From the NCBI RefSeq assembly GCF_002909235.1, contig NZ_PHQQ01000002.1, positions 1 through 64,000 on the forward strand: DNA of 64,000 nucleotides, written 5' to 3'. Shown in pieces: positions 45,468 to 61,840 of this stretch. Each line of letters begins with the position of its first letter. Positions within the stretch are counted from its first letter, which is position 1. Under the pieces are notes generated by a model that saw nothing but the letters and a program-made list of their open reading frames with translations, did no database searches and had not been told where the DNA came from. The stretch comes from Arenibacter catalasegens. GTDB lineage: Bacteria > Bacteroidota > Bacteroidia > Flavobacteriales > Flavobacteriaceae. A program made the position numbers and the translations under genes.

Positions 45468-46760
45468 ATGAAAAAAAAATCTTACGTCTTATGTAAGGCG
45501 AAATTGATATTTTTACTTATTCCATTTTTCTTTCTAGTTTCCCTAAATGTCCATTCACAACAACTAAAGGTGGGTGCGGCCAAACGTATAATTACTCCCA
45601 ACCCATTAATTCCGGTTTCTGGCGGTGTAGGAACTCCCAAGCCCGCTATTGAAAAAAAAGGAGAACTATACGTTAGGGCCATGGTGATAGAAAAGGGGGA
45701 AGAAAAAATAGCGATTGTTAATATCGACAATTTGGGATGGCCAGCAGCGCTTGGAAATAAATCACGAAAATTGATCAAGGACATACCTTTCAATAATATA
45801 TTAATAGGAGCAACACATACCCATAGCGCTCCAGATGCCTATGCTTTTCCGGACGAAAAAGGCAATTTTGCAGCAGATTTAGAATACCTTGATTGGTGCG
45901 TAAACCAAATTGCAGATGCGGTGAATGAAGCTTCAAAAAATTTAGAACCCGCCAAGCTAAAAATAGCAGTTGGGGAAGCCAAGGGCAAAATAGCCTACAA
46001 TTATTACGCTCCAGAATTATACGATCCAAGATGTGGGGTAATACAAGCCTTGGGTACCAGAGGAAAAAATAAAGACCAGCCAATTGTTACTCTGGTAAAC
46101 TATGCCATACATCCGGAAGTAATAGGCAGCGATCGTGGAATTTTGAGCCCTGATCTTATTGGACCACTATACGATAGAATTGAGGCCAAGACCGGCGGGA
46201 TGGCAGTTTTTATGAATAGTGCCCAGGGAGGAATGGTCACTGCAGACAATAGGCTGGACAACAATGCTGAGGCCTATGATTGGGAAGAATGCAACCGCAT
46301 CGGAAATTTGTTGGCAGATGAGGCCTTAAGAATCTTATCAGCTGCCAATATCCAGGAGAATCCTGAACTTTACTGCACCTCCAAACAGGCCGAATTCCCT
46401 ATAGATTCCGAAATGATGCGATACATTTTTAATAATTCGCCTTTAAAAATGGGGAATTCTGAGAGTAGTATTAGTACCACCCTTAACCTTATAAATATTG
46501 GATCGGCCCAAATACTGACCATTCCCGGGGAAGCCCTACCCAATATAGGATATTATTTAAAACGAAATATGCCTACAGAACATCCTTTCCTTTTTGGATT
46601 GACCAACGATGCCTTTGGGTATATATTGACCAAGGAAGATTTCAACAGTTTTAAAAGATATGAATATGTAAGTCGCACCAGCCTAGGGGAAAAAACAGGA
46701 GAAATCCTCATCAATGAACTTTTGACCCTAATTAAAAACAATCCAAAACCCAAGAAGTAA
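45468..46760 (+). CDS. Neutral/alkaline ceramidase-like hydrolase, secreted (copy 1)
   Basis: The 430-residue protein has a signal peptide (LIFLLIPFFFLVSLNVHSQ) and the ceramidase-alk fold start QLKVGAAKRIITPNP. Zinc-site motifs are present: GATHTHSAP (H117/H119), NYAIHPEV, IPGEALPNIG and NDAFGYIL. Neutral ceramidases cut the amide bond of ceramide with a Ser in GDVSPN; here the equivalent stretch is NSAQGGM and the Ser is missing. It may therefore hydrolyse a different substrate, or use another nucleophile. No C-terminal Ig-like ceramidase domain is present. It is the first gene of the plus-strand operon running to 50135. Confidence 0.82.
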   Translation: MKKKSYVLCKAKLIFLLIPFFFLVSLNVHSQQLKVGAAKRIITPNPLIPVSGGVGTPKPAIEKKGELYVRAMVIEKGEEKIAIVNIDNLGWPAALGNKSRKLIKDIPFNNILIGATHTHSAPDAYAFPDEKGNFAADLEYLDWCVNQIADAVNEASKNLEPAKLKIAVGEAKGKIAYNYYAPELYDPRCGVIQALGTRGKNKDQPIVTLVNYAIHPEVIGSDRGILSPDLIGPLYDRIEAKTGGMAVFMNSAQGGMVTADNRLDNNAEAYDWEECNRIGNLLADEALRILSAANIQENPELYCTSKQAEFPIDSEMMRYIFNNSPLKMGNSESSISTTLNLINIGSAQILTIPGEALPNIGYYLKRNMPTEHPFLFGLTNDAFGYILTKEDFNSFKRYEYVSRTSLGEKTGEILINELLTLIKNNPKPKK

Positions 46761-46790
46761 AATAATTGCTAATCCTAACAAAATAACTTT

Positions 46791-48176
46791 ATGAAAAAAA
46801 TGCTTTCTCTTTTTGTATCGATGTCCTTATTATGTATATCCTCCTGTAAGGACAGTCCAAAAAAAATAGTGGAAAATGTTGTCCCAACCGAAGCGATAGT
46901 AACTCCCGAAATAGCACTGCAGAGTTACCTAAAAAATGACGACCAAACCTTTAAGTGGGAACTCAAAGAGAATTACCCCATAGGAGATGTAACCGCCTAC
47001 GAACTCTTACTGACCTCCCAGAAATGGAGAGAGCATGTCTGGACACATGAACTCACGGTATTGGTACCCAAAGAGGTTTCATATGACGGAGCCCTATTAT
47101 TAATTACCGGAGGAAGCGTAAAAGAAGGTATGCCCAATTGGTCTTCTAATGAAGAGGACAGTAAATCGATTAGTTTTGCGAAGGTAGCCGAAAAGAATAA
47201 GGCCATAGTGGCTATCGTAAGACAGGTTCCCAATCAACCGCTATATGACGGTTTAACGGAAGACGAGCTTATTTCTTTTACCCTTCACAATTATAAAAAT
47301 GATAAAGACCCAACATGGCCTTTACTTTTCCCCATGGTAAAAAGTGCGGTTAGGGCTATGGATGCAGTTCAAGAATTCAGCAGTAAAAACCTACAAAAGG
47401 ATATTACACGCTTTACCGTAACAGGAGCTTCCAAGAGAGGCTGGACCACTTGGCTAACAGGTGCGAACGACAAGAGGGTCGAGACCATAGCGCCAATGGT
47501 AATAGATGTTTTAAATATGCCCGTTAGTTTGGATTACCAAATTACAGCTTGGAACGAGTATAGCATACAAATCAACGACTACATTAAATTGGAAATTCCG
47601 CAAACCGTAGGAACCGAAGATGGTAAAGCGTTAACCCAAATGGTGGACCCCTATTCCTATAGGACCCATTTGACCATGCCAAAATTAATCTTTATTGGCA
47701 CCAATGATGAATATTGGCCCGTAGATGCCATTAAGAATTACATTAACGATATCCCTGGTGAAAATTACATTCACTATGTGCCCAATGCCGGTCATGATCT
47801 GGGTGGTGGCGAACAGGCTGTGAGAGCCCTGAGTGCCTTTTGGGGGAAATCACTAAAAAAGACACCTCAGACGTCCTTAGCTTACGATCTTAAAACGGAT
47901 AAAACCTCGGCGACCTTAACGGTCAAAACTACTTCCGATGAACTTCAGAATGCCTATATATGGTCTGCAGATTCCTCTGACAGAGACTTTAGGGACGAGA
48001 AATGGACCTCAAAACAAATAGATTCAAAAGATCATGAACATATTTTTCAGCAGGTAAAATTCCCAAAAAGTGGCTTCAAGGCTTTTTATATAGATTTAGA
48101 ATACGCCGATCCCAATGGTGGAAAATACACCAAGAGCACTAGAATGTATGTAGCTGACGACGATGAAATCCTTTAG
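46791..48176 (+). CDS. PhoPQ-activated pathogenicity-related (PqaA-like) lipoprotein
   Basis: The 461-residue protein has lipobox SLLCISSC and a PhoPQ_related alpha/beta-hydrolase-like domain. Matching parts are LLLITGGSVKEG, AIVAIVRQVPNQPL, TWPLLFPMVKSAVRAMDAVQ, VTGASKRGWTTWLTG (likely nucleophile S214), IAPMVIDVLNMP and GTNDEYWPVDAIKNY. H in VPNAGHDLGG would complete the triad. The biochemical function of the family is poorly known. It lies 30 bases after the ceramidase-like gene and overlaps the next gene by 14 bases. Confidence 0.88.
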   Translation: MKKMLSLFVSMSLLCISSCKDSPKKIVENVVPTEAIVTPEIALQSYLKNDDQTFKWELKENYPIGDVTAYELLLTSQKWREHVWTHELTVLVPKEVSYDGALLLITGGSVKEGMPNWSSNEEDSKSISFAKVAEKNKAIVAIVRQVPNQPLYDGLTEDELISFTLHNYKNDKDPTWPLLFPMVKSAVRAMDAVQEFSSKNLQKDITRFTVTGASKRGWTTWLTGANDKRVETIAPMVIDVLNMPVSLDYQITAWNEYSIQINDYIKLEIPQTVGTEDGKALTQMVDPYSYRTHLTMPKLIFIGTNDEYWPVDAIKNYINDIPGENYIHYVPNAGHDLGGGEQAVRALSAFWGKSLKKTPQTSLAYDLKTDKTSATLTVKTTSDELQNAYIWSADSSDRDFRDEKWTSKQIDSKDHEHIFQQVKFPKSGFKAFYIDLEYADPNGGKYTKSTRMYVADDDEIL

Positions 48177-49080
48177 TAAAAAACAGGCATATTGGTTTTT
48201 AGGAATTATCACCATTCTTTTGCTGCTGGCCTTTACCTTCATTTACGCAAGTGATACCAGCGAAAACCTCCCTGTGAGTGAGTATTACGGTTATGACAAG
48301 GCCATACCACTTAAGGATTCCATAACGCTATTGAAGGATACTACAGACCATACCCTTTTTCATGTTTCCTACTACAGTGTGCACGACAAAAAAGTGACCG
48401 GTTTATTAAGTCTGCCTAAAATCAGCACCTCTCCCCTACCCGTAATTATTTTAATGCACGGTTTGGGAGACAACAAGAGTGTGGATTATGTATCCTATGG
48501 TAACGAACTTTTCCTGAAAAACGGCTATGCTGTATTACGGATCGATTTTAGTCAGCACGGCGAACGGAAGAATGATGTTTATGATTTTAATCTGACCGGG
48601 AATTATAAACACTGGAGCAGGGACATCATTAGTCAGACCGTATTTGACCTAAGACGGGCAGTCGATTTTATTGAGACCCGCAAGGAATTGGATGCCCAAA
48701 GAATAGGATATTACGGCATTAGCCTTGGTGGAATTACCGGCACTGTTTTTTGCGGGGTTGAAAGCCGTGTGAAGGTTCCAATAGTGGCTTTGGCAGGTGG
48801 ACAATTGAATTTGTTGTACGAAAAGAAAGCCCTCTCCAAAGAGGCAAAAAATTTTGTTAGCATCATAGAGCCTTTAAACTTTGTAAAACACATTGCTCCC
48901 CGTCCGTTCCTAATGTTAAATGCAAAAAATGATGAAATAGTACCTCCCTTAATGAGCACCTTACTTTTTAAAGGAGCTAAGGAACCTAAGGAAATTATAT
49001 GGTACGATGCCAAACACAGGGATGCCCCGTTGGACATAATTTTCGGGGACGGGCTCAACTGGTTTAAAAAATATTTATAA
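48163..49080 (+). CDS. Membrane-anchored alpha/beta hydrolase (esterase)
   Basis: The 305-residue protein has an N-terminal membrane anchor (YWFLGIITILLLLAFTFIYA) without lipobox. The hydrolase core has ILMHGLGDNKSVDY (oxyanion region), YYGISLGGITG with nucleophile S187, LNAKNDEIVPP for the acid and DAKHRDAP for His. Similar enzymes are acyl or acetyl esterases. It overlaps the PqaA-like gene by 14 bases and precedes the YdjC-type deacetylase, so the operon carries several de-acylating functions. Confidence 0.83.
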   Translation: MKSFSKKQAYWFLGIITILLLLAFTFIYASDTSENLPVSEYYGYDKAIPLKDSITLLKDTTDHTLFHVSYYSVHDKKVTGLLSLPKISTSPLPVIILMHGLGDNKSVDYVSYGNELFLKNGYAVLRIDFSQHGERKNDVYDFNLTGNYKHWSRDIISQTVFDLRRAVDFIETRKELDAQRIGYYGISLGGITGTVFCGVESRVKVPIVALAGGQLNLLYEKKALSKEAKNFVSIIEPLNFVKHIAPRPFLMLNAKNDEIVPPLMSTLLFKGAKEPKEIIWYDAKHRDAPLDIIFGDGLNWFKKYL

Positions 49081-49106
49081 ATCTATACATCAAAAAAATA
49101 ATTAAA

Positions 49107-50135: not shown

Positions 50136-50185
50136 AAAGAATATCCAGTTATTAAATATTCATCACCTAAACATAAAAAGGAAGT

Positions 50186-50245: not shown

Positions 50246-50262
50246 TCTACTAAACACGATTA

Positions 50263-51651
50263 CTACTGTCCAAAGGCATAGCTAAACCCTACAATCACAA
50301 GATCAGTGGTCATATCATAGGCCACTTCGCTTCCCGGGATAGCCCCGGTAGGATTGGTGTTCGCATTCCATGGACCTCCTGAGCTATCAGGTATTGGATT
50401 TAGCAACGGGCCACTTGTGGGGCCACTGCTAGTTCCGTGGTGATAGGCAACATCAAGGCTCAATCGCTCGTTTACCTTGTAACTGAGCCCAAACTGAAGC
50501 GCATTTTTAATGATTGCGGTCGCAGGAGAGGACATGAAAACAAATTCTTCCTGAATGGGATTTTCACTGTAAGTATACCCTATACGCAAAGGCAGTCTTT
50601 GAATACCCTTATACTGAAGACCCGTAGAGATGACAGAGATACTTTGCCATCCGAATCCCTGTACAGCACCTGTAGGAAATCCTGCGAAATCGCCACTTTC
50701 TGCTATTTGCCAGCCCGACTTTCTAAAGCCATCCGTATTGTCATAGTCAATGTATCTATAATCCAGGGCATAATCAAAATCCCCTTTAGAATATCCTAGT
50801 CCTACCGAATAAATTGCTGGGTAGTCCATATTAAAATCTACGCCAGGAGCCTCGGTTCCATCTAGATACGTATTGCTAAAACTGAAATCATTAAAAACCT
50901 GTTTGGATTTATAAGAAGCACCTAACTTCAATCCGCTTCCGGAATCGTAAAAAACACCTAACTGTGCCCCTATGCCAACGGCCTCGGCTTTATCACTATT
51001 TGGGTAACCTAGGGACTGACTTGGTGCAGCTAGTGGGTTTGGTCCAATTTCCAAAGTGGCATAATTAAAATTCGGTTGTATCCCCAAAGAAATCTTGTCG
51101 GTTATTTGATAGGTATAGGCAAAACTTACCTGCAGTAGCGCATAATCCGATTCTATGCGGCCAAACCCTCCTGAGCTCTGTGGCATTGTTATGGGGTTAT
51201 TCTGACTTTCAGGAAAAGTAACGCCAAAACCGGAAACACCATAGGCCGAGAATCCAAAGGTATGTTTGCTCTCTTCCTTGCCCCAGACATAAGCTAGGGC
51301 CGGCAGTATTGAAACACCCCTGTCATCTCCCGTGGATCCACTGAAGGGCCCGTTTTGGGTAGGCACGGTAGATGAAATGGAAGGATCCGAAAAAAACAAA
51401 CCTGCATTAACAGATAGTATTTGTCCGTCAAAAGATGAAAGTGAGGCCGGATTCCAGAGTAAAGCTCCGCTAATATCCAGCGGCTGGGCTGTGGCAGCAC
51501 CACCCATAGAGGTATTAACACTTCCCACCCCCTGCAGTACATGCCCTACTTGGGCTTGTGCATTTGTGCCCCATATTAGTAAAATAAATATTAAAAAAAG
51601 TCCTCTGGAATTCCCAGAAAAATTCGAAATGTTACTTGTTAATTTATCCAT
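50263..51651 (-). CDS. OmpP1/FadL/TodX-family outer-membrane hydrophobic-compound transporter
   Basis: The 462-residue protein starts with a signal peptide (LFLIFILLIWGTNAQAQ). It has the FadL hatch-region start QVGHVLQGVGSVNTSMGGA with ALLWNPASLSSF, which matches the NPA signature, then a predicted 14-strand barrel ending DLVIVGFSYAFGQ. FadL proteins let long-chain fatty acids and other hydrophobic molecules cross the outer membrane. Its place between two operons encoding ceramidase-like proteins suggests uptake of lipid products (inference). A minus-strand TAGTTTTG (51719-51712) lies about 60 bases upstream of the start. Confidence 0.9.
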   Translation of the reverse strand: MDKLTSNISNFSGNSRGLFLIFILLIWGTNAQAQVGHVLQGVGSVNTSMGGAATAQPLDISGALLWNPASLSSFDGQILSVNAGLFFSDPSISSTVPTQNGPFSGSTGDDRGVSILPALAYVWGKEESKHTFGFSAYGVSGFGVTFPESQNNPITMPQSSGGFGRIESDYALLQVSFAYTYQITDKISLGIQPNFNYATLEIGPNPLAAPSQSLGYPNSDKAEAVGIGAQLGVFYDSGSGLKLGASYKSKQVFNDFSFSNTYLDGTEAPGVDFNMDYPAIYSVGLGYSKGDFDYALDYRYIDYDNTDGFRKSGWQIAESGDFAGFPTGAVQGFGWQSISVISTGLQYKGIQRLPLRIGYTYSENPIQEEFVFMSSPATAIIKNALQFGLSYKVNERLSLDVAYHHGTSSGPTSGPLLNPIPDSSGGPWNANTNPTGAIPGSEVAYDMTTDLVIVGFSYAFGQ

Positions 51652-52239: not shown

Positions 52240-53130
52240 ATGAATTCAACCTCTGGAATTATCCTTGCCATTTCTTTGATCATTATTATGTTTGGGATGG
52301 GTCTATCCTTGACCCTATCCGATTTCAAGAGAGTGGTTACTTATCCCAAGGCCATGATCGTAGGGCTGCTTTGCCAGATGCTGTTACTACCACTAATTGG
52401 GTATTTCATCGCTATTTCCCTAAGCTTGTCCCCAACCACCTCCATTGGCATTATGTTATTGGCTGCCTGTCCGGGTGGACCTACATCCAATATGCTCACT
52501 TACTTAGCTAAAGGAGATTTGGCCTTATCCGTTTCCCTTACGGCAGTTTCCAGTATCTTATCCATTTTAACCATCCCTTTTATTGTGCAATTTGCCTTGG
52601 AAGAGTTTTCCAATAAAAATATGGCCATTACTGTTGATGCCTTAACTATGGTGAAACAACTAATGATTATAGTGATCATACCCGTTGGAATTGGGATGCT
52701 GATAAAGAATAAATTCGAAACCTTCGCGAACAAGATGGACAAACCTGTTAAAATAGCTTCTGCAATAATTTTTGTTTTGGTAATTATTGGGGTGACCATA
52801 AGTGTTAAGGACGTTTTCATGAGCTATCTTAGCGAAGCTGGTCTGCCGGCCATACTATTAAATGTGAGTACTATGACCATAGGATTTTTAATGGCCGTAT
52901 TATTCAAACTAAATAGACCACAGGCCATTAGTATTTCGATTGAAACAGGAATCCAAAATGGAACCCTGGCCATAACCCTGGCAACAATTGCCTTGAATAA
53001 TGCAGAATACTCCATTGTTCCTGCCATCTATGGATTGTTAATGTTTATAACCGCTACCGTAATTATTTTTATCAGAAAACCCCTTGGCGTTAAAGATGAA
53101 TTAAGCCTAAAAAAAGACACCGCCAATTAA
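52240..53130 (+). CDS. Bile acid:sodium symporter (BASS) family transporter
   Basis: The 296-residue inner-membrane protein has about nine to ten helices and the BASS crossover motifs CPGGPTSNMLTYLAKGDLALS (cited in part as GGPTSNMLTYLAKGD) and ETGIQNGTLAIT. The family imports organic anions with Na+, including bile acids, pyruvate, pantoate and sulfonates. As first gene of an operon with a sugar MFS, esterase and glycosidases it may import an acidic or amphipathic product. Sodium coupling fits a cell whose respiratory chain carries Na+-NQR. Confidence 0.9.
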   Translation: MNSTSGIILAISLIIIMFGMGLSLTLSDFKRVVTYPKAMIVGLLCQMLLLPLIGYFIAISLSLSPTTSIGIMLLAACPGGPTSNMLTYLAKGDLALSVSLTAVSSILSILTIPFIVQFALEEFSNKNMAITVDALTMVKQLMIIVIIPVGIGMLIKNKFETFANKMDKPVKIASAIIFVLVIIGVTISVKDVFMSYLSEAGLPAILLNVSTMTIGFLMAVLFKLNRPQAISISIETGIQNGTLAITLATIALNNAEYSIVPAIYGLLMFITATVIIFIRKPLGVKDELSLKKDTAN

Positions 53131-53146: not shown

Positions 53147-54427
53147 ATGAAAAAAAATTACTTCATTGTAGTCCTTATTTTATTCATCTTTTTTGTCATT
53201 TCCTTCCTTACCAATATTTTAGGACCCTTAATACCGGATATCATCACGGATTTCAAGGTTAGTTTAACCATGGCAGCGCTATTACCTTTTGCCTTTTTCG
53301 TAGCCTATGGTGTGTTTTCCATTCCCTCTGGAGTAGCGGTCGAAAGCTATGGCGAAAAACAAGTAATATTAGCTGCATTTTTGGTCTCTTTTTTTGGCGC
53401 TATTTTATTTTCAATGTATCCCAATTTCCCTATAGCGCTGGTATCCCTATTTTTAATCGGCTCTGGAATGGCCATGTTACAAGTGGCCATAAATCCATTG
53501 CTTCGGGTTGCAGGTGGTGAAGAACATTTTGCCTTTAATTCAGTAATGGGACAGCTCGCTTTCGGCCTGGCCTCATTTATTAGCCCTTTTCTTTTCTCCT
53601 ATCTTGTACTCAATTTGGAAAATTACTCTGGTCCTGACAATTCCAATTTTATCATCAATACGTTTCACAACATTGTACCAGAGAACTTGCCCTGGGTTTC
53701 CTTATACTGGATATTTGCCATTATCTCATTATTTATGCTCCTTTTTATATATCCTATAAAACTACCCAAAGTAGAAAGGAATGTAGAAGAGAAAGCTGGT
53801 ACATGGGCCACGAACAAAGAATTGTTAAAAAACAAAAAAGTGATCTTGTTTTTTATGGGATTGTTCGCCTATGTTGGTACTGAACAAGGGGTAGCCAATT
53901 GGATGTCCCAATTTCTCTCGGAATATCATGGATTGGACCCAAGGGTTGAAGGAGCCAGCGCTATTGCAATGTTCTGGGGGCTATTAACTGTTGGCTGTAT
54001 TTTGGGACTGCTATTATTAAAATTTATGGACAGTAAATTGGTCCTGAAAATATTTGCAGCGGCGGCCATCTTGAGTTTGACCGCAGGACTTTTCGGCTCT
54101 GCACAAATTGCCGTTTTAGCATTCCCCTTGGTTGGCTTTTTTGCTTCGGTCATGTGGTCCATAATATTTTCCCTTGCATTGAACTCGGTTAAAGATAATC
54201 ACGGCGCCCTATCAGGAATACTTTGTTCCGGAATTGTAGGCGGGGCCATAGTTCCACTTATAGTTGGGGCTATTGGCGATCTGGTTGGTCTAAAAGGAGG
54301 TATGATTTTTTTATACCTAACCCTAGGTTTTATTTTTAGCATCGGATTTTGGGCCAAACCTCTGGTAAACAACAAAACCATAAGTCTTAAAGAATTTTTT
54401 GGCACTGGAAAAACATCGGAACCTTAA
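53147..54427 (+). CDS. FHS-type MFS sugar transporter (FucP/NagP-like)
   Basis: The 426-residue protein has about 12 helices. FAFFVAYGVFSIPSGVAVESYG (first part cited) and the region MAMLQVAINPLLRVAGGEE with FNSVMGQLAFGLASFISP match the fucose/GlcNAc/glucose proton-symporter branch, where QxxxNP and the N-Q-x-FNS motif are typical. Bacteroidota PULs often carry such a permease for the released monosaccharide. It lies 16 bases after BASS and 12 bases before the esterase. Confidence 0.88.
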   Translation: MKKNYFIVVLILFIFFVISFLTNILGPLIPDIITDFKVSLTMAALLPFAFFVAYGVFSIPSGVAVESYGEKQVILAAFLVSFFGAILFSMYPNFPIALVSLFLIGSGMAMLQVAINPLLRVAGGEEHFAFNSVMGQLAFGLASFISPFLFSYLVLNLENYSGPDNSNFIINTFHNIVPENLPWVSLYWIFAIISLFMLLFIYPIKLPKVERNVEEKAGTWATNKELLKNKKVILFFMGLFAYVGTEQGVANWMSQFLSEYHGLDPRVEGASAIAMFWGLLTVGCILGLLLLKFMDSKLVLKIFAAAAILSLTAGLFGSAQIAVLAFPLVGFFASVMWSIIFSLALNSVKDNHGALSGILCSGIVGGAIVPLIVGAIGDLVGLKGGMIFLYLTLGFIFSIGFWAKPLVNNKTISLKEFFGTGKTSEP

Positions 54428-54439
54428 GTTAAAATAATC

Positions 54440-55396
54440 ATGGGCATGAGAATAGTACTTATTTTATCGATATTCTTATTAATTGTTGGATGTAAAGCAA
54501 AACAATATGATGTTTCTGTACCCCCAAAAGGCTACTCTAGCAATACCACCCTAAAAATAGCCTACGCAACTGGGGCCTTAAAAATAATAGAAACCGATTT
54601 TCCCATTCCGGAAGATATAATGGAACACAAGGATGTCACCTACAAAACAATAGATTCCCTTGATCTGAAGTTAGATCTCTACCACTCCAAGGATATTAAA
54701 AAAGACGCTCCTTTAATTATCTTCATCCATGGGGGGGCATGGAAAAAAGGTAACAAACACGATTATTTGGCGTATTTGATCAGTTATGCCAAAAAAGGAT
54801 ATATAACGGCTACCATTCAATATAGGTTAACCGATGTAGCTAAATATCCTGCCCAGCTCCATGATGTGGAAGATGCTGTAAGGTGGCTAAAAACAAACGC
54901 GGACCAGTACCATATAAATCCTGAAAAAGTAGCCATGGTAGGGGGTTCCGCCGGGGGGCATTTGGCAATGATGAACGCCTATTCCAACACTCCCCAAGAT
55001 GTAGATAAGAACGGAAAATCTGCCGCTGTACAAGCCATCGTGAATTTTTATGGTCCGTCCAATCTTACGGATGAAACTGCCATTAAAGCAGCCTCGGTAC
55101 AATATTTAATAGGTAAATCCTATGAGGAGGCCCCTGAACTGTATAAAAATGCCTCTCCCCTATTTCTGGTTTCAAAAAATGTCCCACCAACCATTACCTT
55201 CCAAGGTACCCTGGACGAATTGGTACCCTATGAGCAATCGGATATATTACATGCCACGCTACAAAAAGCAGGAGCTATTTCTTACTATCACAAACTTAAA
55301 GGCTGGCCACATACCATGGATGCATCCGTAAAAGTGAATGCGTATTGCCAGTACCATATGGATGCGTTTTTTGAAAAGTACATCCCTATAAACTAA
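54440..55396 (+). CDS. Alpha/beta-hydrolase esterase lipoprotein (BD-FAE-like)
   Basis: The 318-residue lipoprotein has lipobox LLIVGC. The esterase/lipase core has IFIHGGAWKKGNKHDY (oxyanion HGGAW, 97-101), VGGSAGGHLAMM with nucleophile S170, LDELVPYEQ (Asp) and WPHTMD (His). This HGGxW / GxSAGG type includes acetyl- and feruloyl-esterases acting on sugar acyl groups. Second esterase in the region after 48163-49080. It precedes GH92 by 15 bases. Confidence 0.88.
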   Translation: MGMRIVLILSIFLLIVGCKAKQYDVSVPPKGYSSNTTLKIAYATGALKIIETDFPIPEDIMEHKDVTYKTIDSLDLKLDLYHSKDIKKDAPLIIFIHGGAWKKGNKHDYLAYLISYAKKGYITATIQYRLTDVAKYPAQLHDVEDAVRWLKTNADQYHINPEKVAMVGGSAGGHLAMMNAYSNTPQDVDKNGKSAAVQAIVNFYGPSNLTDETAIKAASVQYLIGKSYEEAPELYKNASPLFLVSKNVPPTITFQGTLDELVPYEQSDILHATLQKAGAISYYHKLKGWPHTMDASVKVNAYCQYHMDAFFEKYIPIN

Positions 55397-55411
55397 TCCC
55401 AAGGATACGTA

Positions 55412-57778
55412 ATGAAAAGGTTGAAAAAAATAGCAAAAATCACTGCCTATTCTATTGGAATGGTCATATGCCTTGCGCTTATTGCTATTTTCATTGCTAG
55501 CTGGAAATATAAAAACATTGTAAATGCCACACCACAAAATCAAACAGAAAATTTAAAACCAGGACAATTAGGTAAATATGTAAACACCTTTATAGGTACC
55601 GGCGGTTTCCCCCCTTGGGTTTGTGGATTTAACTTTCCGGGTGCAACGGTTCCATTCGGCATGGTCCGACTTAGTCCTGAAACCATGTCCAGCTATAACA
55701 ATACCAAAGATTTTAGCACCTCAGGATATTACTATGGAGACAATAAAATACTTGGTTTTAGCCATACACGATTAGCCGGGACAGGAGCTACGGATGGAGG
55801 GCATTTTCTATTTACTCCGACAACTACACCCAGTAGCAATATTAACTACAAAGAGGACTACACCCATAAATTCTCCCATAACAACGAGATTACTTTTCCA
55901 GGGTATTACCGAGTAAATTTAGAGAAAGAGCACATCGTAACAGAACTTACGGCAACGGAGAGATGCGGACTGCATAGGTACACCTTTACCAAAGACAGTA
56001 ATAAAAATATACTTATCCATATTACCAATACCACTGGTAACCACAGCGCTCAAGACGGTGCAGTTACTATACTTCCCAAAAAAAATGAACTGGAAGGCTC
56101 CGTTAAAACATTCGGCAGCTTCGCAGGTCGTTTTGGAGGAATAAAAGTATACTTTGTAGCTAAATTTGATCAAACTTTTTCCAACTATGGAATTTGGAAT
56201 GGAAAAAAATATAAAACCAATGCAACTTTCGACCAAAGTGATAGTCTAAAGGTATGCTTGAATTTTGCCCAAGAAAAGATATTGGTAAAGGTTGGAATTT
56301 CCCATGTTAGCATTGAAAATGCACGTTTAAACCTTGAGACAGAAGTGGGTAATCTAAATTTTGAGGATATACTCCAAATTGCGAAGGACAAATGGGAAAG
56401 CAAATTGGATTTAATCAAAATTGAGGGTGGCTCACTGGAGGAAAAAAGAGTCTTTTACAGTGCCTTATATCGAAGTTTTCAAATGCCCACTACTTTTAAT
56501 GATATAAATGGACAATATATGGGCTTCGACAAAAAGGTCCACATGGCCAATGACTTTACTTATTATACGGATCTTTCATTGTGGGATACCTTTCGAACAG
56601 TACATCCATTATTTAATTTAATTGCCAAGGGAGAACAACGGGACATGTTGGTTTCTTTGGTAGAAATGGCCAAACAAGGGGGGAGCCTACCACGCTGGCC
56701 CTCAGGTTACGGATATAGCAATTCCATGCTAGGCTCTCCAGCCGATATGGTCATTGCAGAATCTTATATAAAAGGTATCCGCAATTTTGATGTGGACCTT
56801 GCTTATCAAAAAATGAAACAAGTTGCCTTGGAGCCCATTCCAAAAGATAGTTCTGCAACAGGCCGTGAAGAAATAAACGAATATGTTACCTATGGCTATT
56901 GCCCTACCGAATTTGGGGATGAAGCTGTTAGCAAGACCTTGGAGTACGCTTGGGCAGATTATTCTATAAGCCTTTTGGCCAAGGAACTGAATTTCTACGA
57001 AGACCAAATATTGTTTGAAAATCATTCCAAATTCTATAAAAATGTATGGAATCCGGAAACACAATATTTCCAGCCCAGACATAAGAATGGGCATTTTGTA
57101 GAAAAATTTAAACCTTTGCAACTTACATATACGGATTGGGACAAGGAGTATACTAAAGATTACACGGAAGGAAGCGCACTTCAATGGCGATGGGCCGTAC
57201 CTTTTGATACGGATGGATTGGTGTCTCTTTTTAAAGATAAAGACTATTTTATTAGTGAACTTAACGATTTCTTTGCCAAGGCCGATCCTAAAAAAGCCAC
57301 TTGGTCGCCAGGATCTTACTACTGGCATGGAAATGAACCTGATATTCATGCCGCCTACCTTTTCAACACTGTTGGAAGACCGGACCTGACCCAAAAATGG
57401 GTCCGTTGGATTTTGGATAATAAATACGATAATACCTACGTAGGTATCGACGGCAATGATGATGCAGGAACACTGTCCGCTTGGTATATTTTTAGCTCAC
57501 TTGGCTTTTACCCCATTGCAGGAACGGATATCTATCTACTTGGTGCACCATTGTTTAAAAGCGCAGTTCTTAACATGGGTAAAAACCTATTGACCGTTAG
57601 TACGAAAAACTATGACCCAAAACATATCTATGTAAAACAAGTGCTGCTCAACAACATACCCTTGGGCCGCACCTGGATCAACCATAAAGAAATAGCCAAT
57701 GGTGGTAATTTAACATTCATCATGGCCAAACAACCAGAATATTCAATTAACGAACAATCATCAAAATCGACCTTATGA
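55412..57778 (+). CDS. GH92-family alpha-mannosidase, membrane-anchored
   Basis: The 788-residue protein has an N-terminal uncleaved helix (AYSIGMVICLALIAIFIASW). GH92 features in order: VNTFIGTGG, FPGATVPFGMVRLSPET, SGYYYGDNKILGFSHTRLAG, the DLSLWDTFRTVHPL segment, SNSMLGSPADMVIAESYIKG, GNEPDIHAAYLFN and GNDDAGTLSAWYIFSSLGFY. The conserved acidic residues of the Ca2+-dependent inverting mechanism lie in the last two. GH92 enzymes are exo-alpha-mannosidases acting on N-glycans, mannans or phosphomannans. It overlaps the sialidase-like gene by 4 bases, so the two are translationally coupled. Confidence 0.94.
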   Translation: MKRLKKIAKITAYSIGMVICLALIAIFIASWKYKNIVNATPQNQTENLKPGQLGKYVNTFIGTGGFPPWVCGFNFPGATVPFGMVRLSPETMSSYNNTKDFSTSGYYYGDNKILGFSHTRLAGTGATDGGHFLFTPTTTPSSNINYKEDYTHKFSHNNEITFPGYYRVNLEKEHIVTELTATERCGLHRYTFTKDSNKNILIHITNTTGNHSAQDGAVTILPKKNELEGSVKTFGSFAGRFGGIKVYFVAKFDQTFSNYGIWNGKKYKTNATFDQSDSLKVCLNFAQEKILVKVGISHVSIENARLNLETEVGNLNFEDILQIAKDKWESKLDLIKIEGGSLEEKRVFYSALYRSFQMPTTFNDINGQYMGFDKKVHMANDFTYYTDLSLWDTFRTVHPLFNLIAKGEQRDMLVSLVEMAKQGGSLPRWPSGYGYSNSMLGSPADMVIAESYIKGIRNFDVDLAYQKMKQVALEPIPKDSSATGREEINEYVTYGYCPTEFGDEAVSKTLEYAWADYSISLLAKELNFYEDQILFENHSKFYKNVWNPETQYFQPRHKNGHFVEKFKPLQLTYTDWDKEYTKDYTEGSALQWRWAVPFDTDGLVSLFKDKDYFISELNDFFAKADPKKATWSPGSYYWHGNEPDIHAAYLFNTVGRPDLTQKWVRWILDNKYDNTYVGIDGNDDAGTLSAWYIFSSLGFYPIAGTDIYLLGAPLFKSAVLNMGKNLLTVSTKNYDPKHIYVKQVLLNNIPLGRTWINHKEIANGGNLTFIMAKQPEYSINEQSSKSTL

Positions 57779-58854
57779 GACTTTTATTTTTATTATGTAC
57801 TTTGTTAATAGCATCATGTAAAGGAAAAATGGATAAATTACCTGAAGTAGTTCCATTAGATCATCCCGCTATAGTGGAACAGGAATTTGTTTATGAAATA
57901 AAGAATGCGCTAACCCCAGAATGTCATGCTTCCACTGTAGAAGTAAGTAATGGGACTGTTATTGCATCTTGGTTTGGTGGAACGGAAGAAAAGAACGACG
58001 ATGTGGGGATTTGGGTATCCCGAAAAACAGCCGGTTCATGGTCTACCCCTATCGAAGTTGTAAATGGTGTGCAAGAAGATGGTTCCAGATACCCATGTTG
58101 GAACCCTATACTCTTTAAACCAAGAGACCAACCATTAATTCTATTTTACAAGGTAGGGCCTAGCCCAACTGAGTGGTGGGGGCTATATATGACCTCTGAG
58201 GATGATGGCAAAACCTGGTCCAGCCCTACAATGCTTCCAGATGGCATTCTAGGACCTATAAAAAATCAACCCATACAATTGGCAAGTGGGGAAATACTCT
58301 CTCCGTCCAGTACCGAAGATGACACTGACGGCTGGAAAATACATCTTGAACTTAGTTCTGATAACGGAAAGACTTGGTCCAAGACACAGGCCCTTAATGA
58401 TGGTAAGGAATTTGGTGCCATTCAACCAGTGGTCTTAAATTATGGAAATGGAAAATTACAGCTACTGAGCAGAACGGAAAATGAAGTTATCACGGAAAAC
58501 TGGTCTTCGGATTATGGCAGCACTTGGAGTAAAATGGAAGCCACATCATTACCCAACCCCAATTCTGGAGTTGATGGCGTAAGTTTAAAAGATGGGCGAC
58601 AATTATTGATATACAATCCTACTGGTAAAAATTGGGGCGATAGGGTACCTTTAAGTTTGGCCCTGTCCAATGATGGTAAAAATTGGAAGAGGGTATTGGA
58701 CTTGGAACCGTTACGGGAAAATACGGATAAGGAAGGGGAAGAATATTCATACCCAACAATGATACAGGCTACAGACGGTAAGGTGCACATTGTTTATACG
58801 TGGAACAGAAAAACGGTAAAATATATCGTTTTAGACCCCCAAAAACTTAATTAA
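57775..58854 (+). CDS. Sialidase-like (BNR_2) beta-propeller lipoprotein
   Basis: The 359-residue lipoprotein has lipobox LLIASC and a six-bladed propeller with four Asp boxes: SEDDGKTW, SSDNGKTW, SSDYGSTW and a weaker SNDGKNW. The N-terminal ASWFGGTEE and GIWVSRK with EEYSYPTMIQ near the C-terminus place it in the BNR_2 group. The FRIP Arg motif of classical GH33 sialidases is not evident, so true sialidase activity is uncertain; other propeller glycosidases and lyases look alike. It is coupled to GH92 and followed 8 bases later by a ceramidase-like gene. Confidence 0.8.
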   Translation: MRLLFLLCTLLIASCKGKMDKLPEVVPLDHPAIVEQEFVYEIKNALTPECHASTVEVSNGTVIASWFGGTEEKNDDVGIWVSRKTAGSWSTPIEVVNGVQEDGSRYPCWNPILFKPRDQPLILFYKVGPSPTEWWGLYMTSEDDGKTWSSPTMLPDGILGPIKNQPIQLASGEILSPSSTEDDTDGWKIHLELSSDNGKTWSKTQALNDGKEFGAIQPVVLNYGNGKLQLLSRTENEVITENWSSDYGSTWSKMEATSLPNPNSGVDGVSLKDGRQLLIYNPTGKNWGDRVPLSLALSNDGKNWKRVLDLEPLRENTDKEGEEYSYPTMIQATDGKVHIVYTWNRKTVKYIVLDPQKLN

Positions 58855-58862
58855 AAACAATC

Positions 58863-60263
58863 ATGGTAAAATGGTTAAAAATATTGGTTAAAATTTTTGG
58901 AGCACTTATCCTGCTCCTAGTTATTCTTTTCTTTTTAGGTACCAGCACTATAGATACCACTCCGTATTTTGAAACGCAATATTACAAGAATACCATTGAA
59001 AATATAGAGGAAGCCGTTAAAAATAAAACGGAAGCCAAAGGGTCTTTACTAGCTGGATTTGCAAGAACAAATATCACCCCCAAAATTGTAAGCGGAACTC
59101 CAGACCCCAATAACGGGGAATTCAACAGCATTAAAATGGCTGGTTATGGTAGTGGCAAAATTGCAACAGGTGTTCACGATTCCATATTTGCCAAAGCAAT
59201 CGCCATAGATGTCAACAATGAGTCCATTGTACTGATCAACGCGGATCTAGTAGCCATACCCGAAGATCTTGTCTTAAAAGTAACCGAAATCCTAAAAGGA
59301 AAGATATCCAGGAAACAACTTTTTTTTGGAGCTACCCACACCCATTCCAGTATTGGCAATTGCATGCCCGGCTATGTGGGCAAAAGTTTTGGGGGCGAAT
59401 ATCAACCAGAGGTGGTCGCATGGCTTGGCCAAAAATTTTCCGACCTTATTTTAAAGGCTTTGGCAGACAAACAGCCTGCTCAATTTTCATCGGGCTACAT
59501 TAAAGTCCCTAATTTGGTTCGAAATAGAATCATAGGAGAGTCGGGGCGACTAAATGATAAACTAGATCTTTTGTCCTTTATTCAAGAAAATGGCAGAAGG
59601 GCCACTATTGGTGCTTTTTCCGCGCATGCCACCGTAATAGGTACCGATAATGAACTGTATACCGGAGATTATCCCGGATATTTCCAAAGGCATTTGGAAG
59701 AAAACGGGGTGGACCTCGCCATGTTTTTCGCTGGTACGGTCGGAAGTCATTCCAACAAGGGAATAGGCGAGAAATTTGAAAAGGCAAAATACATAGGGGA
59801 AACGCTTGCCGATTCGGCCCAAGTGGCCTTAAACAAAATGGAGCATTCCGGAAATATGGATTTAACGGCGATATCTTCGGAAATCGAAATACCAAAGTTA
59901 CAATTCCTATATATCTCTGACCGTTTAAGACTTACACCCTACTTGGCAAGGAAGCTAATGCCCGTAATGAACCCTATTCATGTGCAAGCCCTTAAACTAA
60001 ATAACCTGATTTGGCTTGCCCTGCCCTACGAACTTAGCGGCGAATATGGCTTGGATCTAAAAAACGCCTTAGAGCTGCAGGGTTATAATTCCGTGCTCAG
60101 CAGTTTTAATGGGCAGTATCTAGGTTATATCGTACCTCAAAAATATTACTATTATGACACTTATGAAGCCCGATTAATGGGATGGTATGGCCCAACCATG
60201 GGTGATTACCTAATGGAGCTCAATTATAAAATGGCCAACGAATTAACACATACCAAGCTATAA
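58863..60263 (+). CDS. Neutral ceramidase-like hydrolase, membrane-anchored (copy 2)
   Basis: The 466-residue protein has an N-terminal membrane helix (ILVKIFGALILLLVILFFLG) and ceramidase-fold motifs: LAGFARTNITPKIVSG, GATHTHSSIG (H159/H161), GAFSAHATVIG, ALPYELSGEYG with the Glu ligand and QYLGYIVP. At the position of the ceramidase nucleophile motif GDVSPN it has GTVGSHSN, so a Ser is kept, unlike in the other two copies. It is probably anchored in the inner membrane facing the periplasm. It lies 11 bases before copy 3. Confidence 0.82.
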   Translation: MVKWLKILVKIFGALILLLVILFFLGTSTIDTTPYFETQYYKNTIENIEEAVKNKTEAKGSLLAGFARTNITPKIVSGTPDPNNGEFNSIKMAGYGSGKIATGVHDSIFAKAIAIDVNNESIVLINADLVAIPEDLVLKVTEILKGKISRKQLFFGATHTHSSIGNCMPGYVGKSFGGEYQPEVVAWLGQKFSDLILKALADKQPAQFSSGYIKVPNLVRNRIIGESGRLNDKLDLLSFIQENGRRATIGAFSAHATVIGTDNELYTGDYPGYFQRHLEENGVDLAMFFAGTVGSHSNKGIGEKFEKAKYIGETLADSAQVALNKMEHSGNMDLTAISSEIEIPKLQFLYISDRLRLTPYLARKLMPVMNPIHVQALKLNNLIWLALPYELSGEYGLDLKNALELQGYNSVLSSFNGQYLGYIVPQKYYYYDTYEARLMGWYGPTMGDYLMELNYKMANELTHTKL

Positions 60264-60274
60264 AACTATATCTA

Positions 60275-61840
60275 ATGAAAACTTTAAAAAAGGGGTTGAA
60301 AATATTCGGGATATCTATCCTTTTACTATTGTTGATCGGGGCATCCATCGTGATGTATAATTGGCGTGATCGCCATCCCGATTATGCAATCGATCTAAAA
60401 ATCGAAAACAAAACACCTCAACCCATAAAGGCCGGATTTGCCAAAAAACCCATAACGCCTACCATCGTGGATACTTGGAACGATGCCAATGGAAACAACA
60501 AATACAGTAAAGACGAAGGCGACACCTTCAATGACAACAACAATAATGGAAAATTTGATGCTTATTGGATAGCCGGAATGAGCAATGCCAAGCCGGCGCA
60601 GGGTGTCCATGACGATGTATGGTCCCGTGTTATGGTAATCGACGATGGCAAAAGCAGGATCGCAATGATTTCTATGGATGCTATTGGTTTTTTACATGGT
60701 GATGTCATCGATATCAGAAAACGTTTACCTGCAGAGTTGGGAATAGATTACACCTTATTATCTTCCACCCATACGCACGAGAGCAATGACCTTGTAGGCA
60801 TCTGGGGAGAAAATATTTTCAATTCCGGCGTAAATCCTGAAATGATGGAATATGTGAAATCCCAAACGGTTGCCGCTATTACGGAGGCCGTACATAATTT
60901 ACGTCCGGCAAAACTGGTGTTCGCCGAAGATCTATCCGGTGAAGATGGCAAACTCATCAAAGACACTCGAAAACCCATTGTAAAAGCCACAGGAATTCAT
61001 TTAATGCAGGTTCTAGATGCCGAAAACGATACTACCATGGGGACTATTGTCAATTGGGCAAATCACCCCGAAACGTTATGGTCCCAAAATTTACTGATCA
61101 GTTCCGATTTTCCACATTTTATACGTGAAGCTATAGAAAATGGCGTATACAATGGAAAGGAATTGATGCAAGAAGGACTAGGTGGAGTCGCCATTTATTT
61201 TTCAGGGGCAATTGGCGGCCTTATGGCCCCCCATCCTTCCTTAGGCATTCAAAATCCCTTTACAGCAGAAGAATATTTTGAACCCACTTTTGAAAAAACC
61301 AAAGCGCTAGGAGATCAAATTGCCCTAATGTCTTTAGCTGCCCTAAAACAAAAAGGAGATACCCTAACCAATTCCAATATTTCGTTAAGGGCAAAAACCA
61401 TATTGGCGCCCTTGGACAATACCACCTTTAAAATTGCCAGTGGCATTGGCTTGATTAAAATGGGCATGCCAGAATACTTCAAATCCAGAACGGAGGTAGG
61501 TGCCATTCGTATAGGCCCTGCCCTATTTTTGAGTATCCCTGGAGAAATATATCCAGAAATTGTTTATGGCGGAATTGAAGCTCCGGAAGGGCGTGAATTT
61601 GACATCCAGCCTATGGAGATACCTCCACTTCAGGAATTGATCACTGACAAGTACAAATTCTATTTAGGACTCTCCAATGATGAAATTGGATATATCATTC
61701 CCAAAAGTGAATGGGATACGGGAAAACCTTATCTCTACAATGACGAAGGGGACACTTATGGGGAAGAAAATTCATTGGGACCAGAAACTGGACCAATCGT
61801 TTACAAGGCGCTAACAGAAGTCATCAAGGATCTAAACTAG
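60275..61840 (+). CDS. Neutral ceramidase-like hydrolase with EF-hand-like insert (copy 3)
   Basis: The 521-residue protein has an N-terminal helix (FGISILLLLLIGASIVMY), then KAGFAKKPITPTIVDTW. An insert at residues 70-98 follows with two Ca-binding-like loops, DANGNNKYSKDE and DNNNNGKFD. Zinc-site motifs are SSTHTHESND (H166/H168), NWANHPETLW, SIPGEIYPEIV and NDEIGYIIP. The GDVSPN position reads GAIGGLMAP, so the nucleophilic Ser appears absent. It is the last gene of the operon. Confidence 0.82.
   Translation: MKTLKKGLKIFGISILLLLLIGASIVMYNWRDRHPDYAIDLKIENKTPQPIKAGFAKKPITPTIVDTWNDANGNNKYSKDEGDTFNDNNNNGKFDAYWIAGMSNAKPAQGVHDDVWSRVMVIDDGKSRIAMISMDAIGFLHGDVIDIRKRLPAELGIDYTLLSSTHTHESNDLVGIWGENIFNSGVNPEMMEYVKSQTVAAITEAVHNLRPAKLVFAEDLSGEDGKLIKDTRKPIVKATGIHLMQVLDAENDTTMGTIVNWANHPETLWSQNLLISSDFPHFIREAIENGVYNGKELMQEGLGGVAIYFSGAIGGLMAPHPSLGIQNPFTAEEYFEPTFEKTKALGDQIALMSLAALKQKGDTLTNSNISLRAKTILAPLDNTTFKIASGIGLIKMGMPEYFKSRTEVGAIRIGPALFLSIPGEIYPEIVYGGIEAPEGREFDIQPMEIPPLQELITDKYKFYLGLSNDEIGYIIPKSEWDTGKPYLYNDEGDTYGEENSLGPETGPIVYKALTEVIKDLN

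What the first reader, a model, noticed from the sequence alone, without database searches (positions are those of the whole stretch)
45468..61840. Possible lipid-linked or N-acylated glycan degradation locus
Seen: within about 16 kb there are three ceramidase-fold proteins, a FadL-type transporter, GH92, a sialidase-like propeller, two esterases, a YdjC deacetylase, a BASS symporter and an FHS sugar MFS. They lie beside two SusCD pairs, and an NAL/DapA aldolase and GH31 operon is nearby. Known: ceramidases release fatty acid and sphingosine; FadL imports hydrophobic acids; GH92 and sialidases act on glycan ends. Inferred: the locus may strip and import the sugar and lipid halves of a glycolipid or acylated glycoconjugate, a combination I do not recall as a described PUL.
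Basis: partly seen in the sequence, partly recalled or inferred. Interest (0 to 1): 0.82.

Follow-up and report, generated by a model that had tools for sequence, protein, structure and literature searches.

The report
Acyl-stripping sugar locus of marine bacteria
Marine bacteria of the genus Arenibacter and their relatives share a gene cluster that appears to import a sugar chain decorated with acyl groups and strip those groups off with several enzymes, three of them distant cousins of ceramide-cutting enzymes whose real target is unknown.

Summary
The genes are as described, with three esterase-type alpha/beta hydrolases, not two. Comparison redraws the locus. FadL lies in the cluster in 4 of 13 readable Arenibacter loci and 0 of 16 readable loci of other genera. 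FHS and GH92 are patchy, and SusC1/SusD1 is absent beside the locus in both sister Arenibacter stretches read. The recurring unit is one divergent polysaccharide-utilization locus: SusC2/SusD2/PKD, AraC and a DapA-type aldolase (PHP and GH31 in some) face a deacylase operon (CER1-PhoPQ-AXE1-YdjC-BASS-BNR2-CER2-CER3). The ceramidase-fold proteins are real homologues with the recalled zinc ligands kept, but the recalled catalytic Ser is Val in 15 of 15 CER1 rows and Met/Ile/Leu in 77 of 77 CER3 rows; CER2 has Ser or Thr nearby, depending on the alignment. I would not call them ceramidases. A BNR2-AraC-DapA-symporter module without SusC2 or CER genes in 3 genomes (2 genera) suggests a sialic-acid-like (2-keto-3-deoxy) sugar. 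Best reading: an acylated glycoconjugate is imported and deacylated, and such a sugar acid is released and split. Boldest reading: lipopolysaccharide/Kdo. The substrate is not shown.

The parts
21677..23455 (-). GH31 with N-terminal hydrophobic segment
   Evidence: PF01055 141.3 bits; hydropathy; near DapA in 7 of 27 DapA neighbourhoods
23452..24906 (-). PHP-domain protein with hydrophobic segments (CehA/McbA-like, below cut-off)
   Evidence: PF02811 29.7 vs 26.4; NF038032 34.8 vs 80; a homologue lies directly before CER3 in 7 of 80 CER3 loci
24987..25913 (-). DapA-superfamily aldolase, neither NAL nor DHDPS by curated cut-offs
   Evidence: PF00701 178.9 bits; NCBIfam scores; neighbours
26197..27063 (+). 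AraC-type regulator
   Evidence: PF12833 82.4 bits; near DapA in 21 of 27 neighbourhoods
35887..36552 (-). hypothetical protein (hyp221)
   Evidence: no Pfam match; homologues beside the locus in several relatives
36561..37832 (-). hydrophobic protein (hyp423)
   Evidence: sequence; homologues beside the locus in relatives
37847..38968 (-). calcineurin-like phosphoesterase
   Evidence: PF00149 57.5 bits; orthologue at the same place in G593 and G749
39090..40745 (-). SusD2
   Evidence: PF12771 260 bits; conserved
40763..44164 (-). SusC2, TonB-dependent transporter
   Evidence: near DapA in 16 of 27 neighbourhoods
44215..45165 (-). PKD-domain lipoprotein
   Evidence: PF18911 49.4 bits; lipobox by regular expression
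45468..46760 (+). CER1, ceramidase-fold protein with zinc-site residues, catalytic Ser position is Val
   Evidence: model pLDDT 86.0, best PDB matches 2zws and 4wgk
46791..48176 (+). PhoPQ_related alpha/beta hydrolase lipoprotein
   Evidence: PF10142 360.4 bits; GASKRG motif conserved in 22 aligned sequences; lipobox
48163..49080 (+). AXE1-like alpha/beta hydrolase with N-terminal hydrophobic segment
49107..50135 (+). YdjC-type deacetylase lipoprotein
   Evidence: PF04794 189.6 bits; HADD and other motifs conserved in 27 aligned sequences; lipobox
50263..51651 (-). FadL/OMPP1 protein, opposite strand, not conserved here
   Evidence: PF03349 87.9 bits; linkage in 4 of 13 Arenibacter and 0 of 16 other loci
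52240..53130 (+). BASS-type symporter
   Evidence: PF01758 142.8 bits; TIGR00841 216.2 vs 326.3, below cut-off
53147..54427 (+). FHS-type MFS sugar transporter, accessory
   Evidence: no NCBIfam model over cut-off; 8 of 14 Arenibacter loci, 0 of 19 other close loci
54440..55396 (+). BD-FAE-type esterase lipoprotein
   Evidence: PF20434 203.4 bits; lipobox
55412..57778 (+). GH92, accessory
   Evidence: PF07971 500.8 bits; 7 of 14 Arenibacter and 2 of 19 other close loci
57775..58854 (+). BNR_2 sialidase-fold lipoprotein without the RIP arginine
   Evidence: PF13088 299.5 bits; PECHAST where RIP is expected, HAST kept in at least 95% of 32 sequences; partial PDB match to NanC and NanB sialidases
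58863..60263 (+). CER2, ceramidase-fold protein with zinc-site residues and N-terminal hydrophobic segment; Ser or Thr near the catalytic position
   Evidence: phmmer to 2zws E 1.3e-8
60275..61840 (+). CER3, ceramidase-fold protein with zinc-site residues and N-terminal hydrophobic segment; catalytic Ser position is Met
   Evidence: model pLDDT 86.7, best PDB matches 2zws and 4wgk

Best explanation
A divergent Sus-type polysaccharide-utilization locus for an acylated glycoconjugate. SusC2/SusD2 with the PKD lipoprotein bind and import an oligosaccharide. In the periplasm, anchored and lipoprotein hydrolases strip its substituents: three ceramidase-fold zinc hydrolases (N-acyl or related bonds), three serine alpha/beta hydrolases (O-acyl) and a YdjC deacetylase. 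The BNR2 propeller removes a sugar, most likely a 2-keto-3-deoxy (sialic-acid-like) acid; a symporter (SSS in most relatives, perhaps BASS or FHS in Arenibacter) imports it, and the DapA-type aldolase splits it to pyruvate and an aldose. AraC is the likely regulator. Shown: gene content, synteny, fold, zinc-site conservation, Ser loss in CER1 and CER3, module recurrence. Inferred: location, direction, substrates, every enzymatic step.
For: The order PhoPQ-(AXE1)-YdjC-(BASS or BD-FAE)-BNR2-CER2-CER3 in four relatives read over 53 to 60 kb, facing PKD-SusC2-SusD2 in three of them (in G129 that Sus pair lies elsewhere on the same contig, with CER1). In 19 other close CER3 loci: CER2 17, BNR2 17, YdjC 14, PhoPQ 13, CER1 11 (found through CER3, flanks cut, so counts of upstream genes are lower bounds and CER3 itself is there by construction). 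Around 27 DapA neighbourhoods, chosen without regard to CER: AraC 21, SSS 19, SusC2 16, BNR2 14, PhoPQ 14, YdjC 14, Gfo/Idh 14, CER1 12, CER2 7, CER3 5. BNR2-AraC-DapA-SSS without SusC2 or CER within 20 kb in 3 of 27 (G755 and G602 of one genus, G598 of another). Homology of CER1-3 to neutral ceramidases with H97, H99, H204, E411 and Y448 equivalents kept (one CER2 row gapped at E411 and Y448). Lipoboxes and N-terminal hydrophobic segments. A sialic-acid locus with SusCD, NAL and a sodium:sialic acid symporter fusion is described in Tenacibaculum (PMC5561996, passages), so such a layout has a precedent.
Against: No activity or substrate data. Of the 11 plus-strand genes of the operon only GH92 belongs to a characterized glycoside hydrolase family, and it is not conserved, so how a polymer would be cut is unclear. 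BNR2 lacks the recalled sialidase RIP arginine. The window has no SSS match within 20 kb of DapA. Location rests on crude hydropathy and a regular expression, not on a signal-peptide predictor. CER1 is missing from G129's main cluster and from G135; BASS and AXE1 are missing in some relatives; G724 and G556 carry the locus with CER1 but no CER2/CER3 in the 40 kb read, and G724 has no BNR2 there. In DapA-centred sampling CER2 and CER3 are not the most frequent neighbours.
Confidence: 0.45

Rival explanations
1. One reading: a glycosphingolipid or glycolipid locus in which true ceramidases release fatty acid and FadL imports it.
For: Ceramidase fold and zinc ligands; FadL present in the window and in 4 Arenibacter loci.
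Against: FadL linkage 4 of 13 Arenibacter, 0 of 16 other loci; recalled catalytic Ser position Val in CER1 and Met/Ile/Leu in CER3; CER proteins are 430-521 aa against 646 aa for the 2zws chain; NF041649 scores 19.1 (CER2) and 24.9 (CER3) against a cut-off of 1200, no match for CER1, though a full-length flavobacterial homologue with the Ser motif also scores only 395.5; no beta-oxidation or sphingosine gene recognised among the operon genes scanned.
Confidence: 0.1
2. An ordinary acetylated algal polysaccharide locus: the esterases and YdjC remove acetyl groups, and the ceramidase-fold proteins are additional deacetylases or lactonases with no link to lipid.
For: BD-FAE, AXE1-like and YdjC families are known for acetyl or feruloyl removal (recalled; the BD-FAE paper PMC8165983 was seen only as a search listing); many hosts are marine Flavobacteriaceae.
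Against: No endo-acting polysaccharide hydrolase or lyase recognised in the recurring core; three ceramidase-fold paralogues are not explained by simple deacetylation.
Confidence: 0.25
3. Lipopolysaccharide or another Kdo-bearing glycoconjugate is the food: Kdo is released by BNR2, split by the DapA-type aldolase to pyruvate and D-arabinose, and the CER and esterase proteins remove N- and O-linked acyl chains of lipid A.
For: FucI with a ribulokinase-type FGGY inside the locus of G135 (NF003154 562.8 vs 428; fuculokinase 40.1) and beside it in L054 (581.5 vs 428; fuculokinase 46.4). In another family (G345) DapA, SSS, a BNR_2 protein, a pentulose kinase (TIGR01315 690.8 vs 408.7) and FucI stand in a row. 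NAL-type aldolases of the same superfamily join pyruvate and D-arabinose to Kdo (PMC4016182, passages); that FucI acts on D-arabinose is recalled. In L072 CER3 ends an operon with an HldE-domain-I-like kinase/HAD fusion, ROK and GmhA-like genes; L077 has such a kinase/HAD gene together with DapA, SSS, AraC and CER3.
Against: G018 and G011 carry the locus but have no FucI match at E 1e-30, and in the window's own genome and G129 FucI lies on another contig; FucI is near DapA in only 4 of 27 neighbourhoods; the second ribulokinase model TIGR01234 is missed (493.4 and 513.5 vs 583.25); heptose-type models are below cut-off (128.3 vs 345; 169.6 vs 276); in PMC4016182 D-arabinose is only a minor substrate (1-1.5% of ManNAc); L-fucose or other D-arabinose sources fit too; no lipid A enzyme recognised.
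Confidence: 0.13

Closest known systems
Neutral ceramidase (2zws P. aeruginosa, 4wgk human; PF04734, NF041649)
   Same: Sequence-profile homology of CER1-3 and fold match of CER1 and CER3 models; zinc-ligand positions kept.
   Different: Shorter proteins, Ser274 equivalent lost in CER1 and CER3, hydrophobic N-terminal segments on CER2/CER3, setting in a Sus locus; NF041649 far below cut-off.
Bacteroidota polysaccharide-utilization locus (SusCD type)
   Same: SusC2/SusD2, lipoproteins, regulator, hydrolases and transporters in one divergent locus.
   Different: Recurring core is dominated by putative deacylases; no endo-acting glycoside hydrolase recognised.
Sialic acid utilization loci (sialidase, sodium symporter, NAL aldolase), for example the SusCD/NAL/symporter locus of Tenacibaculum maritimum (PMC5561996, passages)
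   Same: BNR_2 propeller, SSS symporter, DapA-superfamily aldolase and regulator together.
   Different: BNR2 lacks the RIP arginine, aldolase is not NAL by cut-off, no N-acylmannosamine epimerase or kinase recognised in the locus.

Membership tests
Neutral ceramidase | PF04734 homology above gathering score | tested here: met
   32.4, 50.5 and 33.3 bits vs 32.1; CER1 and CER3 only just, and CER1's partial match in the genome search (24.7) was below it
Neutral ceramidase | Zinc ligands H97, H204, E411, Y448 (roles and numbers recalled) | tested here: met
   15 of 15 CER1 and 77 of 77 CER3 rows; CER2 35 of 35 for the His, 34 of 35 for E411 and Y448 with one gap
Neutral ceramidase | Catalytic Ser274 (recalled), CER1 and CER3 | tested here: not met
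   Val in 15 of 15 CER1; Met 72, Ile 4, Leu 1 of 77 CER3
Neutral ceramidase | Catalytic Ser274 (recalled), CER2 | tested here: inconclusive
   Ser 23, Thr 3 of 26 in one alignment, gap in 35 of 35 in another
Neutral ceramidase | NCBIfam NF041649 equivalog cut-off 1200 bits | tested here: not met
   19.1 (CER2), 24.9 (CER3), no match (CER1). The cut-off is strict: the best of 149 family genomes reaches 395.5
Neutral ceramidase | Hydrolysis of ceramide | not testable with these tools
   needs enzyme assay
SusCD polysaccharide-utilization locus | Adjacent SusC and SusD homologues | tested here: met
   39090-44164
SusCD polysaccharide-utilization locus | Co-localised carbohydrate-active enzymes and regulator | tested here: met
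   GH92, YdjC, BNR_2, GH31, AraC
SusCD polysaccharide-utilization locus | Induction by a glycan | not testable with these tools
   needs expression data
GH33 sialidase | Arginine triad with RIP motif (recalled) | tested here: not met
   PECHAST at the expected place of RIP, from 32 aligned sequences, judged by eye; the other two arginines were not mapped
N-acetylneuraminate lyase | Curated NAL model cut-off | tested here: not met
   79.5 vs 382 and 100 vs 281
Conserved FadL-ceramidase system | fadL linked to the ceramidase-fold genes in relatives | tested here: not met
   4 of 13 Arenibacter, 0 of 16 other loci

The most novel reading that the evidence does not exclude
The locus is a dedicated system for eating lipopolysaccharide (or another Kdo-bearing acylated glycoconjugate) from other bacteria or algae: BNR2 is a Kdo-releasing hydrolase, the DapA-type protein a Kdo aldolase, and the three ceramidase-fold proteins are a new class of zinc amidases that remove the amide-linked acyl chains of lipid A, two of them working without the ceramidase serine.
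Probability: 0.12. Interest if true: 0.85.

Novelty: new variant of a known kind. Interest (0 to 1): 0.5.

Why it matters
Three ceramidase-fold paralogues recur, with esterases, a sialidase-fold protein and an aldolase, in one locus across about a dozen named genera of marine Bacteroidota, not every genus having all three. My searches found no paper that connects such proteins with glycan use (three Tenacibaculum papers that hold both words treat their ceramidase as a virulence factor in the passages seen). Assigning a substrate would give a function to a family whose members are often labelled ceramidases (recalled) and could show how marine bacteria recycle acylated glycoconjugates.

Tried and rejected
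FadL as a partner: rejected by linkage. SusC1/SusD1 and the UnbV/ASPIC protein (27188-35568) as part of the locus: absent between hyp221 and AraC in both sister Arenibacter stretches and not seen in the loci of the four relatives, so left out. Sialic acid (NAL) route: not supported by cut-offs. Sulfoquinovose through GH31: best PDB matches are cycloalternan-forming enzyme, other GH31 and YicI, and NF007746, which I recall as the YihQ model, is far below cut-off (85.6 vs 553). Sphingosine-phosphate lyase in L065: the gene matches diaminobutyrate or aspartate decarboxylases instead, below cut-off. D-arabinose/Kdo route: kept only as a rival, because G018 and G011 lack FucI. Phylum-wide DapA sampling was too thin (2 of 395 genomes with the own one). 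Reference ceramidase: one match at E 1e-60 in 149 family genomes (L116, 395.5 bits, full length, below the curated cut-off); it has the NAGDLSPN motif and served to place the sites. PHP against PDB: nothing at E 0.01. The phosphoesterase-rich setting of CER3 in L087-L089 was seen, but no background count was made.

Sampling limits: CER3 loci were found through CER3, so its presence there is no evidence. Of the 80 loci, 64 were tallied (14, 19 and 31) and 16 were not. L052 (Algoriphagus, CER3 83%) was put in the group of 31; its locus keeps CER3, hyp423, FHS and SusC2/D2 homologues but not the operon order.

Papers: ten searches (two found none). Of one search's 261 papers only 20 were listed. 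I saw search listings, plus word-search passages of four papers (PMC5561996, PMC10288586, PMC10013915, PMC4016182); no paper was read in full.
Full report
Observation. The window has intact ORFs for every gene named, and Pfam confirms their families. The operon on the plus strand runs from 45468 to 61840 with eleven genes: CER1, PhoPQ_related hydrolase, AXE1-like hydrolase, YdjC, BASS, FHS, BD-FAE, GH92, BNR_2, CER2, CER3. FadL lies on the minus strand between YdjC and BASS. The genome has six PF04734 places, three of them here.

Source. The host is probably an Arenibacter: CER3 loci of Arenibacter species reach 95% identity, and two further genomes are labelled same genus. The genus name is inferred.

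Conserved linkage. A CER3 search matched 7 of 148 other genomes of the family sample (8 of 149 with the window's own): six at 46-82% identity and one (G104) at 32%, which I do not count as an orthologue. Four of them were read over 53 to 60 kb (G018, G129, G011, G135). All keep PhoPQ-(AXE1)-YdjC-...-BNR2-CER2-CER3; CER1 is in the cluster in G018 and G011, BASS in G018 and G135, BD-FAE in G129, FadL and FHS in none of the operons. G011 has weak FHS (30%) and GH92 (36%) homologues outside its operon, within about 13 kb. G129 has a second stretch with CER1 and the Sus pair elsewhere on the same contig. The two other relatives, G025 and G094, have CER3 at 46-50% without the rest of the operon in the 20 kb read.

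A scan of named genomes gave 80 CER3 loci. At 40% identity or more, 14 Arenibacter loci hold CER2 14, BNR2 13, BASS 13, YdjC 11, BD-FAE 11, FHS 8, GH92 7, FadL 4; 19 other loci with CER3 at 71% or more, mostly named Flavobacteriaceae, hold CER2 17, BNR2 17, YdjC 14, PhoPQ 13, AXE1 12, PKD 12, CER1 11, BASS 10, BD-FAE 5, FucI 4, GH92 2, FHS 0, FadL 0; in 31 further loci the partners are rare (PhoPQ 4, CER2 2, YdjC 2, BNR2 1). Sixteen loci (SAR86, Myxococcales and other outgroups, and one Flavobacteriaceae MAG) were not tallied. Flanks were 10 kb at most, so upstream genes are undercounted, and CER3 is present by construction.

FadL. Where the stretch before BASS or after YdjC can be read, FadL is there in 4 of 13 Arenibacter loci (L037, L039, L040, L045; L051 is cut short) and in 0 of 16 loci of other genera, where the gap after YdjC is 215 bases or less. 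In five genomes searched, homologues at E 1e-10 were found only in the window's own and in G135, there on another contig. FadL is a lineage-specific neighbour on the opposite strand.

One locus, not several. The facing strand carries PKD-SusC2-SusD2 and then, in varying subsets, DapA, PHP, GH31, hyp423, AraC, a second DapA, an SSS symporter and a Gfo/Idh oxidoreductase. I read 27 DapA neighbourhoods in 23 genomes (22 of the 24 family genomes; G037 and G681 were not fetched; plus G345). Within 20 kb, at 38% identity or more: AraC 21, SSS 19, SusC2 16, BNR2 14, Gfo/Idh 14, PhoPQ 14, YdjC 14, CER1 12, PHP 11, CER2 7, GH31 7, CER3 5, FucI 4, FadL 1. Distance limits make these lower bounds: the window's own BNR2 is over 30 kb from DapA and is not counted. 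The SusC1/SusD1/ASPIC stretch (27188-35568) is missing between hyp221 and AraC in both sister Arenibacter stretches (G593, G749). In three genomes of two genera (G755, G602; G598) BNR2-AraC-DapA-SSS stand without SusC2 or CER genes; G669 has BNR2, AraC, DapA and Gfo/Idh without SSS, SusC2 or CER; in two genomes of one genus (G758, G607) AraC-DapA-SSS stand without BNR2. This links the propeller to the aldolase.

Ceramidase-fold proteins. Profile searches of the PDB with each family hit only human and Pseudomonas neutral ceramidases. AlphaFold models of CER1 (pLDDT 86.0) and CER3 (86.7) also match only these at E below 0.001; CER2 was not modelled. The site reference was a flavobacterial homologue, L116, that spans the neutral-ceramidase model and has the Ser motif but is itself below the curated cut-off (395.5 vs 1200). 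The positions recalled as zinc ligands are kept in all 15 CER1 and 77 CER3 rows and in 34 or 35 of 35 CER2 rows. The recalled nucleophile Ser274 is Val in 15 of 15 CER1 and Met 72, Ile 4, Leu 1 of 77 CER3 (rows that match CER3 best, down to about 30% identity). For CER2 it depends on the alignment: Ser 23 and Thr 3 of 26, a gap in 35 of 35; CER2 also has an invariant Ser close by (S295). The numbering is recalled, but E411 and Y448 fall on the expected chain positions of 2zws. In the same genome two of three other paralogues have Ala and one Ser at this place. So these look like zinc hydrolases of the ceramidase fold whose chemistry has probably shifted; calling them ceramidases is not justified.

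BNR2. It matches BNR_2 strongly and the sialidases NanC and NanB in PDB only over part of its length (residues 119-339 at most). Where sialidases have the RIP arginine (recalled) the window protein has PECHAST; HAST is kept in at least 95% of 32 aligned sequences and the rest in at least 60%. It is a sialidase-fold protein but not a canonical GH33.

Aldolase. Curated models place it in the DapA superfamily without passing any cut-off; the best PDB matches are 4xky, named dihydrodipicolinate synthase, and YagE. NAL is not supported.

Location. PhoPQ, YdjC, BD-FAE, BNR2, PKD and SusD2 have lipoboxes by regular expression; CER2, CER3, AXE1-like, GH92, GH31 and PHP start with a strongly hydrophobic segment. 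This fits a periplasmic deacylation stage, but it is inference.

Hints about the sugar. Some relatives carry FucI, in G135 and L054 with a ribulokinase-type FGGY (over one ribulokinase cut-off, under the other), in or beside the locus, and G345 of another family has DapA, SSS, a BNR_2 protein, a pentulose kinase and FucI in a row. NAL-type aldolases can join pyruvate and D-arabinose to Kdo, though D-arabinose is a minor substrate for them (PMC4016182, passages); FucI accepting D-arabinose is recalled. A PHP homologue directly precedes CER3 in 7 of 80 loci, mostly Bacteroidales MAGs (L069, L072, L075, L076, L095, L107, L110). In L072, the one scanned in detail, the operon also has HldE-domain-I-like kinase/HAD, ROK and GmhA-like genes, below their equivalog cut-offs. 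Against this, G018 and G011 have the locus and no FucI, and FucI is on another contig in the window's own genome and in G129. The Kdo/LPS idea is a hypothesis worth a test, not a result.

Literature. Ten searches (listed in Tried and rejected) showed no paper that links ceramidase-like proteins to a polysaccharide-utilization locus and none on a Kdo-using locus. Three Tenacibaculum papers hold both words; in the passages seen the ceramidase is discussed as a virulence factor, apart from the Sus loci. Most subscription papers are not held, so absence is weak.

Verdict. A real, recurring and unassigned locus, in kind a polysaccharide-utilization locus, with an unusual deacylase-rich core.

Noticed in passing
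27188-35568: SusC1/SusD1 with a large FG-GAP/UnbV-ASPIC lipoprotein sits between hyp221 and AraC in the window but is absent there in both sister Arenibacter stretches read: perhaps a recent insertion.
   Followed up: partly
60275-61840, residues about 66-96: CER3 has an Asp/Asn/Gly-rich insert resembling calcium-binding loops (by eye); D87, N89, N91, F94, D95 are invariant in 38 sequences.
   Followed up: no
L097-L105: CER3 homologues (36-37% identity) occur in SAR86 and other marine bacteria with none of the window's other genes recognised nearby; neighbours differ, for example a BCCT transporter in L101 and a TonB receptor in L098.
   Followed up: no
L087-L089: In Sinomicrobium the order is SusC-SusD-Metallophos-CER3-GDPD, a phosphoesterase-rich setting (coordinates for L087).
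   Followed up: no
L028 12826-15024, L138 12890-15091, L144 9538-11508: Neighbours of unknown function in several relatives: a 732-aa protein (PROP732, no Pfam family over cut-off) and a 656-aa FG-GAP protein.
   Followed up: partly
L026, L027 (own genome): Three further ceramidase-fold paralogues elsewhere in the genome; the recalled Ser position is Ala in two and Ser in one, with glucose/sorbosone dehydrogenase or SSS and amidohydrolase genes nearby.
   Followed up: partly
11675-19295: Genes of a Na+-translocating NADH:quinone reductase (nqr) with ApbE, beside a T9SS plug-domain protein at 19414.
   Followed up: no
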